Shown here: positions 2,116 to 54,234 of the stretch, one piece after another
Position numbering within the stretch: the first letter of the stretch is position 1
How the letters are laid out: every line of letters begins with the position of its first letter
Source of the DNA: Alkalibacillus aidingensis
GTDB taxonomy: Bacteria > Bacillota > Bacilli > Bacillales > Alkalibacillaceae
Direction of reading: 5' to 3'
NCBI RefSeq assembly: GCF_014595945.1
Contig: NZ_JABXWU010000005.1
Coordinates: forward strand, 62,001 to 126,000
Length of the DNA stretch: 64,000 nt
Position numbers and translations under genes: made by a program
Notes under the pieces: generated by a model
Told to the model about the DNA's origin: nothing
What the model saw: the letters and a program-made list of their open reading frames with translations, nothing else
Database searches by the model: none

Positions 2116-3393
2116 TTAGCGTGAAATCTTTTCAACATTCCCCATATATGGTCGTAATACTTCAGGAATTATGATTGAGCCATCTTCTTGTTGGTAATTT
2201 TCCAAAATAGCTGCCACTGTACGTCCTACTGCTAACCCTGAACCATTTAAAGTATGAACATATTCCGGTTTGGCATTTGTCTCAGGACGATAACGTAATC
2301 CAGCACGTCTCGCTTGAAAATCTTCGAAGTTTGAACATGAAGAGATCTCACGGTAATCATCATAGCTCGGGATCCATACTTCGATGTCATACTTCTTAGC
2401 AGCTGTAAAACCAAGGTCAGCTGTACACATATTCATTACTCGATAAGGTAGTTTTAATAATTGAAGTACTTTTTCTGCATGTCCAGTTAACTGTTCCAAT
2501 GTTTCATAAGAATCTTCAGGTTTTACAAGTTGGACCAGTTCTACTTTATTAAATTGATGCTGTCTAATTAATCCACGTGTGTCACGACCCGCAGAGCCCG
2601 CTTCACTACGGAAGTTCGTGCTGAATGCTGCGTATTTCTTTGGTAGATCTTCAGCCGTTAAAATTTCATCACGGTGATAGTTTGTTACAGGAACCTCGGC
2701 AGTTGGAATTAAGAAATAATCCCAATCCTCTAGTTTGAAGACGTCTTCTTCAAATTTAGGTAACTGACCAGTTCCTGTTAAGCTATCACGATTAACGATT
2801 TGAGGTGGTAACATCTCTTCATAACCGTGCCCATCAGCATGTAAGTCCATCATGAAGTTGATTAAGGCACGTTCTAAACGAGCTCCTAAGCCTTTATAAA
2901 AAGTAAAACGGCTACCTGTTACTTTTGATGCACGCTCAAAATCTAATAAATCTAATTCTGTAGCGAGATCCCAATGCGCTTTGGTATCAAAATTAAAAGA
3001 AGGTACCTCCCCCCACTGACGAACCTCCTCGTTGTCATCTTCTGTTTCACCAATAGGGACAGAGTCATGAGGAATATTAGGAATAGAAAGTAATAAATCA
3101 TTGAGTTTTTCTTCTACTTCTTTTAAATTCTCATCGATTTCTTTGACACGATCACCTACTTCACGCATTTCTTTAATTAGATGATCCGCATCTTTCTTTT
3201 CCTTTTTTAGGACAGAAATTTCTTTAGAGACTTCATTACGACGAGCCTTTAGCTCTTCTGATTCTTGAATATACTCTCTTCTTTTTTCATCCCATTCAAC
3301 AAAGCGATCAAGTTCTCTTAGATCTTCACCACGACTTTGCATTTTTTCTTTAACTTCAGTAAAGTTTTGACGTAAGTACTTCAAGTCAAGCAT
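2116..3393 (-). CDS. serS: Seryl-tRNA synthetase
   Basis: SerS charges tRNA-Ser with serine using ATP in the cytoplasm. The product is 425 residues, the same length as the B. subtilis enzyme. The start [11 protein letters not shown] (ATG at 3393) is preceded by AGGAGG; an upstream in-frame start at 3411 overlaps that ribosome site and is less likely. The N-terminal third is the tRNA-binding antiparallel coiled coil (E/K-rich, residues about 25-105). Class II motifs follow, including [21 protein letters not shown] (motif 2) and the C-terminal [19 protein letters not shown] (motif 3). A T-box leader lies upstream, so expression should rise when tRNA-Ser is uncharged. Confidence 0.98.
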
Positions 3394-3462
3394 GTTCATT
3401 CCTCCTATCATTACTATAGAGTAGACACTGTTCAGTTCAATGAGATTAAACAGGTCTATAAT

Positions 3463-3690
3463 AAAAAAATCCCGTCCCTTACTTCATAAGGGACGAGATG
3501 ATTCTCCCGCGTTACCACCCTTGTTGAAGAGAATATTCTAAATCCCCTTCCAACTCGGCAAGCTGTAACGGCGCTTCATCCGGATTAACTTACTCGTGTT
3601 TCGGTTAACCTGCTCCAGGATGGATTCACAGATTGTTTTTACTGGTTCGCAGCTACCACCAGCTCTCTGGAAAAAACAACAACTGTTACT
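3463..3690 (-). promoter_or_regulatory. T-box riboswitch leader of serS
   Basis: Read on the minus strand the leader has AGAGAGC at its 5' part (3661-3667) and the T-box core GGGTGGTAACGCGGGAG (about 3504-3520). It ends in a terminator stem, GTCCCTTA/TAAGGGAC plus T-run (3463-3500). The T-box bulge pairs with the NCCA end of uncharged tRNA to favour antitermination. A serine specifier codon is expected near 3625-3635 but I could not settle which triplet it is. Confidence 0.93.
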
Positions 3691-3753
3691 AATTCCCTTC
3701 TACGCATTTACTTAATAACATCATGTCATAATTATATTAATAATATACCTGTT

Positions 3754-48666: not shown

Positions 48667-48693
48667 ATAAAAACAAAATGTGAGGTGTTAAAA

Positions 48694-49941
48694 ATGGGTT
48701 ATTACGATGATCATATCCATAATAAAAAGGAACAAAATAAAGGTCGTAGTTGGCTTTTACCGGCAATTTTAGGATCTATTATTGGATCAATTATCATCTT
48801 GATGGCATTACCAGTTTTATCACAGACAAACATATTACCTTATGATTTGGGCTCACAAAATGAGAATAGTGGCAGTCCCAATGAAGATGTGGAAATTCAA
48901 CAAGATTTAGATGGTGATGGAACATTTGAACAAAATTTACAAGTAGATGTACAATCGCGAACGACTGAAATTGTCGAAGAAGTTTCAGACTCAGTGGTGG
49001 GAGTTGTAAATATTCAAAACCAAAGTATTTTCGGTGGTCCGACTAATCAAAATTCTGAGGATGCGCCTACAGGGTCTGGAGTTGTTTATAAGATCACAGA
49101 CGATAATGCTTATATTGTAACTAACCACCACGTCATTGAAGGAGCTGATTCGGTAGAAATTGTCTTTGCCGATGATACTCAAGTAGAAGCGGATATAGTT
49201 GGTAGTGATGTCTATTCTGACTTAGCTGTCCTACGAGTTGATGATGAATATGCCGATCAAGTGATTCCATTAGGTCAATCAGAGACGATTAATGTAGGTG
49301 AACCTGTGCTTGCAATTGGTAATCCATTAGGCTTACAGTTTGCAGGATCAGTTACACAAGGTATTATAAGTGGTAAAGATCGCCTCATTCCAATTGATCT
49401 CACTAATAATGGTGTTGTTGACTGGCAGGCTGAAGTCATCCAGACTGATGCGGCCATCAACCCTGGTAACTCAGGTGGAGCCTTAGTTAACATGCAAGGT
49501 GAATTGATTGGTATTAACTCAATGAAAATTGCATCACATCAATTGGAAGGTTTAGGTTTTTCTATCCCAATTGATATGGCCCGTCCAATTATGGAGGAGT
49601 TAGAACAACATGGAGTGGTCACGCGGTCTTACTTAGGTATCTCCCCTTATTCACTTGGAGATGTCGCTCAATTCCATTGGGACAATACACTAAACTTGCC
49701 AGAAGAGGTTGAGGGTGGAGTATTAGTCTCATCAGTCGAATCTACATCACCGGCTGGTCAAGCTGGATTAGAGCAGTATGATGTGATTGTTGAGCTAGAT
49801 GGAGAACCGGTCATGAATGTACTTGAACTCCGTCAGTACCTCTACACGGATACAAGTCCAGGTGATGAGCTAACGATTACATTCTACCGAAATGGAGAAT
49901 TACAAGAAGTCACTACAACATTAACTTCACAGGATTTTTAA
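48694..49941 (+). CDS. htrC: HtrA-type membrane serine protease (HtrC/YycK)
   Basis: A 415-residue DegP-like protease. A cytoplasmic N-terminus and one membrane segment (LLPAILGSIIGSIIILMALPVL) are followed by a trypsin-like domain with His in TNHHVIEGADSV, Asp in YSDLAVLRV, and Ser in NPGNSGGALV. One PDZ domain is C-terminal (GGVLVSSVESTSPAGQAGL). The ATG at 48694 is chosen over the GTG three codons earlier. Last gene of the wal operon. Confidence 0.96.
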   Translation: MGYYDDHIHNKKEQNKGRSWLLPAILGSIIGSIIILMALPVLSQTNILPYDLGSQNENSGSPNEDVEIQQDLDGDGTFEQNLQVDVQSRTTEIVEEVSDSVVGVVNIQNQSIFGGPTNQNSEDAPTGSGVVYKITDDNAYIVTNHHVIEGADSVEIVFADDTQVEADIVGSDVYSDLAVLRVDDEYADQVIPLGQSETINVGEPVLAIGNPLGLQFAGSVTQGIISGKDRLIPIDLTNNGVVDWQAEVIQTDAAINPGNSGGALVNMQGELIGINSMKIASHQLEGLGFSIPIDMARPIMEELEQHGVVTRSYLGISPYSLGDVAQFHWDNTLNLPEEVEGGVLVSSVESTSPAGQAGLEQYDVIVELDGEPVMNVLELRQYLYTDTSPGDELTITFYRNGELQEVTTTLTSQDF

Positions 49942-49953
49942 TCAAAAGATAAC

Positions 49954-49990
49954 AACGACTTGCTCATACATGTGAGCAAGTCGTTTTTTT
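49954..49990 (+). terminator. Terminator of the wal operon
   Basis: A perfect 13-bp stem AACGACTTGCTCA / TGAGCAAGTCGTT followed by Ts. Confidence 0.88.
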
Positions 49991-50293
49991 ATACACACAG
50001 GAATGTTCGTAAATAAGGGTTATACACAAAATTGGTCAACTTATTAACATTATGTGTATAGTTAAACGTCGACTTATATATCTAGTAGTAATACTTTGGT
50101 TTTTAACTAAATATAGCACGAACATATGTTGATATGTTGATAAATCTGTGGATAAAAGGCCATTTGTGAATAAACACTGTTGAAAACCTGTTGATTATTC
50201 ACTTATGCACAATGATTGTAAACAAATTGTTGATAACTGTAGTAAAACCCATGAGATCAAGATCTACTTTCATCAAGGGGCACATGTGAATAA
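49989..50293. promoter_or_regulatory. Cluster of DnaA-box-like sequences
   Basis: In about 300 bp there are TTATACACA (49989, 50020), TTATCCACA on the minus strand (TGTGGATAA, 50147), and TTATTCACA on the minus strand (TGTGAATAA at 50165 and 50285). There are also TTATTCACT (50195) and TTATGCACA (50203). One is a perfect box and the others differ by one or two bases. No open reading frame is present in 49990-50493. Confidence 0.6.
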
Positions 50294-50502
50294 TTGACTG
50301 AGGAAAATTAATGTTCGTATTAAAAACGTGGAATGGTGAGAAATGGCAGGTAAATTTTCAAAAATGGCTCGTAAACAAAGTAGAATAGCTAGGACTACGT
50401 CATAGCTAGTTATATCCAAGTAGGGTCAACTTGTCATAAGAAGACGGTTTGGTAAAATGATATACAATTGTGAATGGATACTAAAATTATGAGGTGATAT
50501 TT

Positions 50503-52011
50503 ATTTGTGGAATCTTTGCACGAACTGGACATTTAATGGATGATGAGATGGACCGTATATTACATAGTATGGAACATAGAGGGCCTGATGAAGGGAAAAC
50601 GGTTCAGTTAGATCAATTCCATTTAGGCCATCAACGACTATCAATTATCGGATTAGACGATGGAATTCAGCCAATCGGCAATGAAGATCAACATAAATGG
50701 GTCGTCGTAAACGGAGAAATCTATAATTATCCACAGCTTAAACCACAATATGAGGATAAACATACGTTCTTAACAGAGTCAGATAGTGAAATTGTGTTAA
50801 AAGTTCTTGAAGAAGATGGGGTAGACGGAATCAAAAAGCTTGATGGCATGTTTGCTTTTTTCTTTGCTGATGAAGATAACCATTCATTTGTTGCAGCGAG
50901 AGATACGTTAGGAATTAAACCATTGTATTATGGAAAAGATCAACATGGCAAATACATGTTTGCTTCAGAGATGAAAACACTTTATCTGATTACAGAAGAA
51001 GTAAATGAATTTCCTGCAGGACATTATTACACACCAGAAACCGGTTTTGTTTGCTACCGTCAAATAGAGCGACCCCATCAAGAGGAAATAGGTCAAACTG
51101 ATGTTGATCAGTGTTGCTCAGCGATTAATCAATACTTAGAAAATGCTGTGAAAAAACGGTTACTATCTGATGTTGAAGTTGGCGTTTTATTGAGTGGTGG
51201 TTTAGATAGTAGCTTAATTGCTGCAATTGCTAAAAAGCATCATGAAGGAGATCCACCACTTAAATCATTTTGTGTCGGTTCAGAAGGTAGTGAAGATATC
51301 CTTCGAGCAAGAGAAGTTGCTGAAGCGATCGGAACGGACCATTATGAATATATTTATACGAAAGAAGAGTTAGTTGAAGTCATTCGTACGGTGATTTATC
51401 ATCTAGAATCATATGAACCGTCATTAGTTAGAAGCGCCTTGCCGAACTATTTTGTATCTAAATTAGCATCAAAACATGTGAAAGTGATTCTCTCAGGTGA
51501 AGGTGCAGATGAATTATTTGCAGGGTATGATTACTTGACAGACTTTCATTCAACAGACATGCTCAATGACGAAATTATTCGGATCATTAACTCACTTCAC
51601 AATATTAACTTACAGCGTGCTGACCGAATGAGTATGGCGCATTCGCTAGAGTTACGAGTACCATTTTTGGATTTGGAATTAATTGATGAGGCTTTAAAAA
51701 TCCCCGTTGATCTGAAGCTACATAAAGATGGGCAAATGGAGAAATGGATTTTAAGGAAGTCATTTGATGGAGTAATCCCAGAAAGTGTATTGTGGCGAAA
51801 GAAAGAAGAGTTTTCTGCTGGTAGTGGAGCTCTTGATATCTTAGAGCAGTATGCGAATGAAACGATATCGGACCATGAACTTTTAACCTATCAACAAGAA
51901 GCGGAAATTGAACTAAGAACTAAACAAGAGTGCTTATATTATAAGATTTTTAAAGAACTATTTCCAAGTAAATCGGCACTTGAAACAGTTGGTAAATGGG
52001 CAACCGCATAA
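50503..52011 (+). CDS. Asparagine synthetase (glutamine-hydrolysing)
   Basis: It makes asparagine from aspartate, ATP and glutamine. The class II amidotransferase nucleophile must be the N-terminal Cys after Met removal. CGIFARTGHL is encoded from TGT 50506, so initiation should be at the preceding ATT (50503), with GAGGTGAT upstream. The other choice is a GTG at 50494 with a 4-residue propeptide. Glutaminase motifs (HRGPDEG, NGEIYNY) precede the synthetase PP-loop LLSGGLDSS. About 502 residues, shorter than B. subtilis AsnB, nearer the E. coli form. It lies between htrC and rlmH, an insertion relative to B. subtilis. Confidence 0.92.
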   Translation: MCGIFARTGHLMDDEMDRILHSMEHRGPDEGKTVQLDQFHLGHQRLSIIGLDDGIQPIGNEDQHKWVVVNGEIYNYPQLKPQYEDKHTFLTESDSEIVLKVLEEDGVDGIKKLDGMFAFFFADEDNHSFVAARDTLGIKPLYYGKDQHGKYMFASEMKTLYLITEEVNEFPAGHYYTPETGFVCYRQIERPHQEEIGQTDVDQCCSAINQYLENAVKKRLLSDVEVGVLLSGGLDSSLIAAIAKKHHEGDPPLKSFCVGSEGSEDILRAREVAEAIGTDHYEYIYTKEELVEVIRTVIYHLESYEPSLVRSALPNYFVSKLASKHVKVILSGEGADELFAGYDYLTDFHSTDMLNDEIIRIINSLHNINLQRADRMSMAHSLELRVPFLDLELIDEALKIPVDLKLHKDGQMEKWILRKSFDGVIPESVLWRKKEEFSAGSGALDILEQYANETISDHELLTYQQEAEIELRTKQECLYYKIFKELFPSKSALETVGKWATA

Positions 52012-52098: not shown

Positions 52099-52578
52099 AT
52101 GAACATAACCATTGTTGCCGTTGGTAAACTCAAAGAAAAATATTTAAAACAAGGAATAGATGAATACTTAAAACGCTTAAGTAAGTATGCCAAAGTCAAA
52201 ATTGAAGAGATCCCAGATGAGCAAGCTCCAGATAACCTAAGCAAAGCAGATGAAGAAGCGGTGAAACAAAAAGAAGGAGATAAAATCCTAACCAAGTTAT
52301 CCACAGACACCTATGTAATTACGTTGGAGATTGAAGGGAAGCCATTAACATCAGAAGCTTTCGCTAAAAAGATGGACGAGTTAGCTACATACGGCAAGAG
52401 TAAAGTCGCATTCGTGATTGGAGGATCGCTAGGTTTAAGCGATGAGGTGAAGCAAAGAAGTGACTTTGCCATTTCGTTTAGTCATATGACTTATCCACAC
52501 CAGTTAATGAGATTAGTGTTGTTGGAGCAAGTTTATCGTGGGTTTAGGATTAATAGGGGTGAACCGTACCATAAATAG
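52099..52578 (+). CDS. rlmH: 23S rRNA (pseudouridine1915-N3) methyltransferase RlmH
   Basis: A SPOUT-class methyltransferase acting on 70S ribosomes. The 159-residue product has [12 protein letters not shown] and the conserved end [11 protein letters not shown]. The gene is complete. Its 3' end is the attachment site of staphylococcal cassette elements, and here a serine recombinase gene overlaps its last 66 bp on the opposite strand. Confidence 0.97.
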
Positions 52579-54234
52579 AGGCAAAAATTGTTCAAGATAA
52601 GGTGGTAATTTATCGTTAGAAACTGTTGTTTGAGGCAGGATTACTCCCTCTTCATCAGTTTCTAAATATAATAAGTGGATTAAGGCAAAAGTTTTTGAGA
52701 TATTAACTTCAGTGAAATCAAAATCGAGTTCTATTGTATCCACAACACGTGTTTTATCTTTAGGTTGAAAAATGCTAATACTTTCTATCAATAATTGTAG
52801 TAATTGTTTTTGTTTATTTCTAGATGATCGTTCATAAGTTTCAGTAAACTTTCTTAAAAGGACATGAAGAAGATCTGGCTGTATAACCTTAGTATCGATT
52901 GAGCTGAGTTTAGTACTTAGTTCATTTTTTCTTTGTTCTAATGTTGATTTTTCCTCGGATACATCCTTTAGTCGCTCTTGTAAAATATCCACAGGAAATA
53001 GATTTTGTTCATATGCCTCGAAATATTTATCTTGAAGTTCTTTCAATTCGATAATTCTAATATCAACATTTTTTAATTCTGATTGGATTTCTTTAGTAGA
53101 ATTAACGGAGTCTTTATTAAGTGAATTAATCTTTAACGCGAATTCCTCTTTGTTATTAATTAATTCCTGAATTTTTTCTATAGTTGTACTTTCCGCATTA
53201 TAAGCTTTAATTGAATTAGCTCTACAAGCGGAAGACCCCTTGTTGTGAAAATCGCTGCATACATAATATCGATGCTTTCTTTTTGTGCCGTCTTTACGTG
53301 TATAGGTGGTAATTGATGGAACCATACCTTGTCCGCAATCAGGACATCGTAATATGCTGCTTAACAAAAATGGTTCATTTGATTGTCTCTGTTTAAAAGA
53401 TTTACTTTTTCTTCGAGTTTGTACTATATTCCATAACTCGTCACTGATTATCGCTTCGTGTTTACCTTCTACCAGTATAGGATTTGGATTTTTTCCTTTT
53501 CTGCGTTTAGTATCCCAATTTTCTACTTTAAGCCAACTAATCTTTCCATTATATATGGGATTGTCTAAGATAGTTGCGATGCCGTTAATTGAAAAATAAC
53601 GATCTTTTTTTGTACGGTATCCTTGTTTGTTTACATAGTTTGCAATGGCCTTTAATCCTTTTCCTTTTGCATATTGATCAAAGATAAGTTGAATAACATT
53701 TGATTCCTTTTGATTGATAATAAGTTCCTTTTCAATTGAATCGTAACCAAACACAATTCCACCATTCCATTCACCTTGGAGAGCGCGTTGTTTCATGCCA
53801 AGTTTTACGTTTTCAGATAGTGTATTCCTTTCCATTTCGGCAATGGAAGCCATAAGCTGCAGAACAAGTCTTCCGATGGGACTACCAGTATCAAAGTTTT
53901 CCGAGTAAGAAATGAATTTCACATTATATTCTTCAAATTTATCCAAAAGAACCAACGTGTCCAACATGTTACGTGAAAGACGAGAGATCTTCCAGACTAA
54001 AACAGCTTGGAATTTATTCTTCTCTATATCTGACACAAGTCGTTGCATGGCGGGTCGTCCTTTAATCGATTTTCCACTTATCCCTTCATCAATATATTCG
54101 TCACTTACATCCCAACCATATAACTTTGCGTATTGACGTAGGGTATCCAGTTGAGCGTCAATACTGTATCCCTCACTTGCTTGCTCTTCTGTGCTGACGC
54201 GGCAATAGATAGCGACTTTTTTTATTTCATTCAT
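52513..54234 (-). CDS. Large serine recombinase reading into rlmH
   Basis: A 573-residue site-specific recombinase. The catalytic Ser14 is in YCRVSTEEQ; the resolvase domain (1-150) includes [14 protein letters not shown], followed by a recombinase domain, a zinc ribbon (RCPDCGQGM, later C[13 protein letters not shown]), and a coiled coil (about 370-450). These are the features of phage/ICE integrases and of Ccr enzymes. Its stop codon (52513-52515) is inside rlmH, so its last 21 residues are antisense rlmH. That places the attachment core within the coding sequence; excision would change the C-terminus. It likely catalyses integration of the island to its right. Confidence 0.93.
52560..52578. 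other. Predicted attachment site at the rlmH 3' end
   Basis: GTGAACCGTACCATAAATAG covers the RlmH C-terminus (GEPYHK, stop) and corresponds to the place and spelling of SCC attB in staphylococci (TATCATAA). The matching right copy was not found in the window, so the boundary is inferred from the recombinase position. Confidence 0.5.

What the first reader, a model, noticed from the sequence alone, without database searches (positions are those of the whole stretch)
49989..50293. DnaA-box-rich spacer outside oriC
Seven DnaA-box-like 9-mers lie within 300 bp, one perfect (TTATCCACA), about 32 kb from oriC and just after the wal operon. B. subtilis has DnaA-box clusters outside oriC that tune initiation by titrating DnaA. 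This could be such a cluster, or a control element for the asparagine synthetase gene.
Basis: partly seen in the sequence, partly recalled or inferred. Interest (0 to 1): 0.5.

Follow-up and report, generated by a model that had tools for sequence, protein, structure and literature searches.

The report
Conserved DnaA-box cluster near oriC
The spacer is a dense array of predicted binding sites for the replication initiator DnaA that Bacillus-type bacteria have kept in the same region and with the same internal spacing even where neighbouring genes were lost or replaced, which suggests that the DNA itself helps control when the chromosome is copied.

Summary
The htrA-asnB spacer has 8 DnaA boxes within one mismatch of TTATCCACA (6 fit TTATNCACA); 0.29 were expected and 0 of 3000 shuffles matched. 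Only oriC and one other place in this genome also hold four or more TTATNCACA in 305 bp. By synteny it is the counterpart of a known B. subtilis DnaA-binding region, yyzF-yydA (seven sites, Kd 0.16 uM; PMC4447404). New here: (1) at least 3 boxes in 350 bp beside htrA or rlmH in 60 of 60 genomes of 39 families, against 0 of 5078 background windows; (2) 28-58 kb from dnaA in the 52 genomes measured; (3) fixed geometry: a forward box 91-97 bp before a reverse tandem pair; (4) persistence without yyzF or an adjacent rlmH, with changing downstream genes; (5) an SOS-box-like palindrome beside the reverse array in 68 of 95 loci. asnB control is not supported. Best reading: a gene-independent DnaA-binding element that restrains initiation. 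No binding was measured here.

The parts
49942..50493 (.). htrA-asnB spacer that holds the element
   Evidence: ORFs; sequence
49954..49985 (+). intrinsic terminator of the wal-htrA genes
   Evidence: 14-bp stem followed by T run
49989..49997 (+). DnaA box TTATACACA
50020..50028 (+). DnaA box TTATACACA (outer forward box, 21 bp before the next; the class '>>21' occurs in 11 of 20 own-family loci)
50041..50049 (+). DnaA-box-like TTATTAACA (2 mismatches), forward box of the '> 91-97 <' geometry
   Evidence: lines up with the LST codons of yyzF in relatives
50119..50132 (.). SOS-box-like palindrome CGAACATATGTTGA; its first 12 bases are identical in the 10 genomes aligned, all of them without yyzF
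50127..50135 (-). degenerate reverse box ATATCAACA (2 mismatches), 8 bp before the next
50135..50143 (-). DnaA box TTATCAACA (first of the tandem reverse pair)
50147..50155 (-). perfect DnaA box TTATCCACA (second of the tandem reverse pair, 12 bp on)
50165..50173 (-). DnaA box TTATTCACA
50203..50211 (+). DnaA box TTATGCACA
50228..50236 (-). DnaA box TTATCAACA
50285..50293 (-). DnaA box TTATTCACA
50431..50458 (+). promoter-like sequence before asnB (TTGTCA-16-TAAAAT, TG before the second hexamer), outside the cluster
   Evidence: consensus match only
48685..49941 (+). htrA-like protease gene behind the wal genes; left neighbour of the cluster in most loci
   Evidence: Trypsin_2 and PDZ
50494..52011 (+). 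asnB (GATase_7 + Asn_synthase), between the cluster and rlmH in part of the genus
52099..52578 (+). rlmH (SPOUT methyltransferase), next gene after the cluster in most of the relatives

Best explanation
This is the counterpart, in an Alkalibacillus-like bacterium, of the B. subtilis yyzF-yydA DnaA-binding region. DnaA molecules fill two facing sets of boxes (forward boxes on the left, a tandem reverse array on the right) held 91-97 bp apart, about 32 kb from oriC, and so form a compact complex that is copied soon after each initiation. The complex takes up DnaA and thereby holds back re-initiation. Shown here: the boxes, the geometry, their conservation, and their survival without yyzF or an adjacent rlmH. 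Shown by others in B. subtilis: DnaA binding at the corresponding region, and early initiation when six clusters outside oriC are deleted. Inferred: that DnaA binds this copy, that its main conserved role is initiation control rather than control of a neighbouring gene, and that the palindrome binds a second protein that shapes or gates the complex.
For: Density far above chance. At least 3 boxes in 350 bp in 60 of 60 genomes, at least 4 in 57 of 60, against 0 of 5078 background windows of the same loci. Distance from dnaA 28.4-57.6 kb in 52 of 52 measured; 8 of the 60 genomes were not measured. Spacing: '<<13' in 30 of 37 loci (random maximum 9 in 500 trials); own family '<<12' 17 of 20 and '><107' 15 of 20 (random maximum 8). 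Base-level selection inside yyzF: where the protein reads Leu-Ser-Thr the codons are within one mismatch of TTATCCACA in 41 of 44 loci, against 12.8% expected from codon use (the loci include near relatives, so the tail probability printed there is not to be taken literally). yyzF (TIGR04129) is absent genome-wide in 6 of 6 genomes of the genus and 17 of 22 of the family, yet the boxes remain. Of 39 loci in which rlmH does not start within 400 bp of the array, 36 keep a forward box (up to 2 mismatches) 91-97 bp upstream; the first ORF of 130 aa or more beyond it belongs to 24 sequence families and is on the other strand in 12 of 39. In G033 rlmH lies about 160 kb away with no box in the 4 kb read around it, and the cluster stays with htrA. 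B. subtilis: Kd 0.16 uM, 7 sites; six-cluster deletion initiates early.
Against: No DnaA binding or replication data for this organism. In B. subtilis DnaA is also reported to regulate the yyzF-yydABCD genes, so the ancestral role may be transcriptional. One review says that the B. [quoted passage not shown] The cluster stays between htrA and rlmH in most genomes, so part of the constant distance to oriC is ordinary synteny. Where rlmH is adjacent and yyzF present only 25 of 40 loci have the forward box at 91-97 bp. The geometry was found and counted on the same loci, the pair search favours pairs that have the forward box, and no chance level was computed in that call. Outside the order 25 of 35 rlmH loci have fewer than 4 boxes in 350 bp.
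Confidence: 0.62

Rival explanations
1. The cluster is mainly a DnaA-controlled promoter region: DnaA (with a LexA-like repressor at the palindrome) represses transcription of whatever operon lies downstream, ancestrally yyzF-rlmH.
For: DnaA appears to repress yyzF-yydD in B. subtilis. In the 40 loci with yyzF and adjacent rlmH the reverse pair begins 44-353 bp before rlmH, and the aligned consensus has a promoter-like TTGTgG...TACaAt around the palindrome (my reading by eye). In the window a 9-of-12 promoter-like match (50033-50062) lies inside the cluster, though such matches are no commoner than in shuffles (13 found, mean 9.6).
Against: The element is kept where rlmH is not adjacent and yyzF is lost (20 of 22 such loci keep the forward box); the next gene is not constant and is on the other strand in 12 of 39. 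In the window a terminator-like repeat stands between asnB and rlmH (seen by eye; the scan did not list it).
Confidence: 0.22
2. Control element for asnB.
For: asnB is the next gene in the window, G001, G002 and, broken, G003.
Against: Present in 60 of 60 genomes, the great majority without asnB there; the best promoter-like match between boxes and asnB lies beyond the cluster.
Confidence: 0.04
3. A datA- or DARS-like switch: a fixed DnaA complex with a second protein that changes the nucleotide bound to DnaA rather than merely storing DnaA.
For: Regular geometry and a conserved non-DnaA palindrome beside the arrays. The B. subtilis region was one of two with a slight preference for ADP-DnaA, at one concentration only.
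Against: The overall affinities in that paper favour ATP-DnaA at this region (Kd 0.16 against 0.33 uM). B. subtilis is reported to lack IHF and no such switch is known there. Nothing biochemical tested.
Confidence: 0.08
4. Chance AT-rich clustering or relict boxes of a mobile or plasmid origin.
For: AT-rich (68%) spacer; a serine recombinase gene lies 2.2 kb downstream.
Against: 0 of 3000 shuffles; present in all 60 genomes at one locus.
Confidence: 0.01

Closest known systems
B. subtilis yyzF-yydA DnaA-binding region (region 8 in Table 1 of PMC4447404, passages seen; that it is one of the six clusters deleted by Okumura et al. 2012 is recalled)
   Same: Synteny: upstream of rlmH (yydA = rlmH is recalled; consistent with a TIGR04129 gene at the cluster in most relatives and with B. 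subtilis being the one of 14 control genomes that has TIGR04129). Similar number of boxes (8 here; 7 there).
   Different: Here yyzF is lost, asnB stands between cluster and rlmH, and the cluster lies directly behind htrA, about 32 kb from oriC; the B. subtilis peak is 78 kb from the trmE peak by the coordinates in Table 1.
E. coli datA
   Same: Non-coding DnaA-box cluster outside oriC that includes a site for another protein (IHF); negative effect on initiation is the expected one.
   Different: No IHF site looked for, no sequence relation shown; ATP hydrolysis untested.
Bacillus LexA (SOS) box
   Same: 7 of 8 core positions of GAACNNNNGTTC in the window; this genome's lexA has CGAACGAATGTTTG in front.
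   Different: The two bases after GTT are GA (AA in some relatives), where the sites before lexA, a yolD gene and a metallophosphoesterase gene have TG, CT and, on an ATT half, CG. LexA binding untested. A CGAACATATGTTCT site lies before an aconitase gene, so a match need not mean an SOS gene.
E. coli uvrB promoter region under DnaA and LexA (PMC6015884; start of the abstract seen)
   Same: DnaA boxes and LexA sites in one regulatory region.
   Different: A promoter of a repair gene; here no repair gene is the next gene.

Membership tests
B. subtilis-type DnaA-box cluster outside oriC | Several DnaA boxes, far denser than chance, away from oriC | tested here: met
   8 boxes vs 0.29 expected, 0 of 3000 shuffles; one of three such places in the genome
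B. subtilis-type DnaA-box cluster outside oriC | Same locus as a measured B. subtilis cluster (yyzF-yydA) | tested here: met
   htrA - cluster - asnB - rlmH here; htrA - yyzF/cluster - rlmH with matching spacing in relatives. Rests on yydA = rlmH, which is recalled; the B. subtilis sequence itself was not read
B. subtilis-type DnaA-box cluster outside oriC | yyzF present at the cluster | tested here: not met
   TIGR04129 absent from G000 and from all 6 genus genomes; an accompanying gene rather than a requirement for DnaA binding
B. subtilis-type DnaA-box cluster outside oriC | DnaA binds it in vitro or in vivo | not testable with these tools
   known only for B. subtilis
B. subtilis-type DnaA-box cluster outside oriC | Loss, with the other clusters, advances initiation | not testable with these tools
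   reported for B. subtilis; passages of reviews seen
LexA (SOS) operator | GAACNNNNGTTC core (recalled) | tested here: inconclusive
   7 of 8 in the window; at most one mismatch in 28 of 38 yyzF- loci and 40 of 57 yyzF+ loci vs 0.57 and 0.85 in shuffles; 27 of 95 have none
LexA (SOS) operator | LexA binding / damage induction | not testable with these tools
   no assay data
datA / DARS | Changes the nucleotide state of DnaA, with IHF (and Fis) | not testable with these tools
   B. subtilis is reported to lack IHF and these loci
asnB operator | Occurs with asnB | tested here: not met
   present in genomes without asnB there

The most novel reading that the evidence does not exclude
Bacilli have an ancient, oriC-proximal counterpart of datA/DARS: a fixed-geometry DnaA complex at htrA-yyzF-rlmH whose palindrome binds a LexA-type repressor, so that DNA damage alters DnaA availability and initiation. 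The small gene yyzF overlaps this DNA element, its Leu-Ser-Thr codons being a DnaA box, and could be lost without loss of the element.
Probability: 0.1. Interest if true: 0.85.

Novelty: new variant of a known kind. Interest (0 to 1): 0.58.

Why it matters
How Gram-positive bacteria limit DnaA outside oriC is open: a 2026 review states that it is unknown whether B. subtilis has regulators that balance the ATP and ADP forms of DnaA (PMC13220808, passage). A cluster that keeps its region, its spacing and a second motif across families, and outlives the genes next to it, says that the DNA element is the selected unit. It gives natural versions without yyzF and without adjacent rlmH (such as this window) in which initiation control can be tested apart from transcription of those genes, and it names a specific second site to test for a partner protein.

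Tried and rejected
asnB regulation: rejected (see rivals). Plain AT-richness: rejected. A second replication origin: not pursued. Rok as reader of the palindrome: considered, because I recall AACTA as its preferred sequence (a Rok paper with 22 uses of AACTA came up, listing only). The window's palindrome has no AACTA, but one lies at 50105-50109, just upstream, in a stretch (ACTAAATA) shared by 9 of the 10 genomes, so Rok or a like protein is not excluded; not tested. RefZ sites: considered (passages of PMC6657595); no site sequence was given there to compare. Other B. subtilis clusters: the jag-mnmE spacer of the window has no box and one lies inside jag (20401), so that cluster seems absent here; the others were only judged by the genome-wide TTATNCACA list. 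Okumura 2012 and Ishikawa 2007 could not be read (not held); what I say of Okumura comes from passages of reviews. Whether the conservation or the palindrome is in print: looked for; nothing seen in those listings, but most listed papers were not opened and the two key papers are not held, so it may be known. A search for SOS-like sites in the own genome gave 35 places within one mismatch of CGAACNNNNGTTCG against 80 for the control pattern, so the pattern alone proves nothing. A first regular expression for Leu-Ser-Thr returned 0 by error and was mended.

Rows dropped before counts: one search left out 5 of the 41 loci L139-L179 with fewer than 4 boxes (L144, L151, L153, L161, L177), kept one genus-mate (L179) and added the window. 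(79 of 101) includes duplicate loci of the same genomes. One search aligned 10 genomes, all without yyzF. One search left out 7 duplicate or cluster-free loci and all with fewer than 4 boxes, leaving 98, of which 96 had the tandem pair (L119 and L179 did not); its 'not adjacent' class means rlmH start over 400 bp away or unknown and includes L045, L052 and L063 (471-703 bp), in two of which (L045, L052) the next ORF is rlmH itself. In one search, 12 of 36 family-level loci and 1 of 18 own-family loci have no palindrome within one mismatch. The 80 loci are the best RlmH matches, not an even sample; those without htrA within 10 kb mostly show no cluster near rlmH, as expected if it stayed with htrA, but that was not checked. 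The middle's output was cut from view; later calls used its saved table. In one search the genomes G000, G003, G004, G014, G017, G021, G027 and G041 were not measured.

Full report
OBSERVATION. The spacer between htrA (48685-49941) and asnB (50494-52011) contains eight 9-mers within one mismatch of TTATCCACA, six of them TTATNCACA. Dinucleotide shuffles of the spacer give 0.29 and 0.08 on average, and none of 3000 reaches the observed numbers. Of the 29 other spacers listed there, the two at oriC hold 3 and 12 boxes and the other 27 hold 0 or 1. The genome has 148 TTATNCACA in all (43, 51 and 54) against 150 for the reversed control patterns, and only three places hold four or more within 305 bp: this spacer, oriC, and C24:10773-10840.

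NEIGHBOURHOOD. The closest named match is Alkalibacillus haloalkaliphilus (RlmH 90% identical). A terminator-like stem (49954-49985) lies just before the first box. rlmH follows asnB.

CONSERVATION. I read the stretch around htrA and rlmH in named loci (L001-L080) and in 59 unnamed relatives which, with the window's own genome, cover 39 families of the order. All 60 genomes have at least three boxes in 350 bp beside htrA or rlmH, 57 at least four and 47 at least five; of 5078 other 350-bp windows in the same loci none has three. In 52 genomes where dnaA and cluster were placed on one contig the distance is 28.4-57.6 kb, median 35.9 kb; the other 8 were not measured. Five further loci of the order have 4 to 8 boxes in 350 bp (5 of 5). 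Outside the order 10 of 35 rlmH loci have four or more, some with the same spacing (L183, L189, L203), and 25 of 35 do not; only the stretch up to about 4.5 kb before rlmH was read there, and only with the TTATCCACA consensus.

GEOMETRY. Box spacing is regular. Among 36 loci of other families (one a genus-mate) plus the window, a reverse pair 13 bp apart occurs in 30 of 37, whereas random placement of the same boxes never put more than 9 loci in any one class in 500 trials; in the own family the classes '<<12' (17 of 20), '><107' (15 of 20), '><95' (12 of 20) and '>>21' (11 of 20) stand out against a random maximum of 8. The common core is a forward box 91-97 bp before a reverse tandem pair (79 of 101 loci, duplicates included, up to 2 mismatches per box). 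In the window the forward box of the core is the two-mismatch TTATTAACA at 50041, preceded 21 bp earlier by TTATACACA, and the pair is 50135 and 50147.

A GENE INSIDE THE ELEMENT. In most families the left part of the element is the end of a small gene of family TIGR04129 (CxxH/CxxC protein), which I take to be yyzF of B. subtilis (name; the link rests on its place before rlmH and on B. subtilis being the one of 14 control genomes with the family). The forward box is its Leu-Ser-Thr codons: in 44 loci with LST the codons are within one mismatch of TTATCCACA in 41, against 12.8% expected from codon use in walJ and htrA of the same loci. The loci include near relatives, but the bases, not only the amino acids, appear selected. 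The window's genus lacks the gene genome-wide (0 of 6), as do 17 of 22 genomes of its family. In several of those the codons that line up with LSTxC run directly into a stop (read by eye), which suggests loss rather than original absence; the boxes and the 94-96 bp spacing remain.

INDEPENDENCE FROM NEIGHBOURS. In 39 loci rlmH does not start within 400 bp of the array. The forward box at 91-97 bp is kept in 36 of these 39; in the 22 of them that also lack yyzF it is kept in 20. The first ORF of at least 130 aa beyond the array in those 39 loci falls into 24 sequence families and is on the other strand in 12; in two it is rlmH itself after a long spacer. In G033 rlmH is about 160 kb away without any box in the 4 kb read (L151) while the cluster stays behind htrA (L150). 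In other genomes (L162, L166, L175, L178, L181) the cluster instead lies with rlmH, away from htrA. This speaks for a DNA element with its own function, and against asnB control.

A SECOND MOTIF. In ten genomes of the family that lack yyzF the most invariant stretch is not a DnaA box: CGAACATATGTT (50119-50130) is identical in 10 of 10. It fits GAACNNNNGTTC, the Bacillus SOS box as I recall it (a C. difficile LexA paper with this string came up, listing only), with one core mismatch. Family members that have yyzF carry a similar site 45 bp before the reverse pair instead: of 18 own-family loci 11 have it at -15, 6 at -45 and 1 has none. Over all loci a site with at most one mismatch lies beside the reverse array in 28 of 38 without yyzF and 40 of 57 with it, against 0.57 and 0.85 in shuffles, mostly at -42 to -45 or at -15; 27 of 95 have none. 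In yyzF+ loci the codon before the final Asn ends in G in 42 of 45, against 17% background, and in at least 8 loci the right half lies beyond the stop codon, so this too appears selected as DNA. In L143 the order of the two halves is inverted. The genome's lexA carries CGAACGAATGTTTG in front, so the motif is in the range of LexA sites; against this, the bases after GTT differ from the likely SOS sites I looked at, a very similar site lies before an aconitase gene, and the SOS pattern is not in excess in the genome (35 places against 80 for the control). I leave the reader protein open.

HOW IT WORKS. In B. subtilis the corresponding region binds DnaA with Kd 0.16 uM (ATP form; 0.33 for ADP) at seven sites (PMC4447404, passages), and a strain without six clusters outside oriC initiates early, partly cured by one cluster put back (PMC5295017, passages; PMC13220808, passages). 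With the conservation above I take the window's element to be a DnaA-binding complex, copied soon after initiation, that lowers free DnaA. Transcriptional control is the main rival, since DnaA is reported to regulate yyzF-yydABCD (PMC8203912, passages), and both may be true in genomes that kept those genes. A nucleotide-switch role like datA or DARS is possible but untested.

NOVELTY. The kind is known (B. subtilis clusters). New, as far as the searches named under Tried and rejected show, are the order-wide geometry, the overlap with the Leu-Ser-Thr codons of yyzF, the survival without yyzF and adjacent rlmH, and the SOS-box-like palindrome. The two central B. subtilis papers were not readable here, so some of this may already be noted.

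Noticed in passing
window 52513-54234 (-), at the 3' end of rlmH: A large serine recombinase gene (Resolvase, Recombinase, Zn_ribbon_recom) overlaps the end of rlmH; a related recombinase begins at the same distance in other loci (for example L004, L011, L013, L014, L018, L024). The rlmH 3' end looks like a common integration site, as orfX is for SCC elements (recalled).
   Followed up: partly
G000:C24:10773-10840 and on to about 80 bp before the gene at L180:2519: A second dense DnaA-box cluster upstream of a MerR/TipAS regulator gene. Seven boxes each also stand before the gene's relative in the 3 genus loci found (L244, L245, L246), but 0 or 1 in the 5 loci of other genera (L247-L251).
   Followed up: partly
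window 50491-50508: asnB probably starts at a rare ATT codon (50503) directly before the Cys codon that such enzymes need (recalled), 6 bases after GAGGTG; G001-G003 show ATC or ATT at the same place (alignment, by eye).
   Followed up: no
window 50727, 52297 and 52491: Perfect TTATCCACA inside asnB (one) and rlmH (two); whether they belong to the DnaA complex was not tested.
   Followed up: no
L060, L063 and L129 (G012); also G003: A second, diverged rlmH copy a few kb downstream of the first with a recombinase match between them; G003 has a second, 55% identical copy on another contig. As if brought in by an integrated element.
   Followed up: no
window 3486-3711 (-): T-box leader (Rfam RF00230, 139 bits) before the ORF at 2116-3411.
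   Followed up: no
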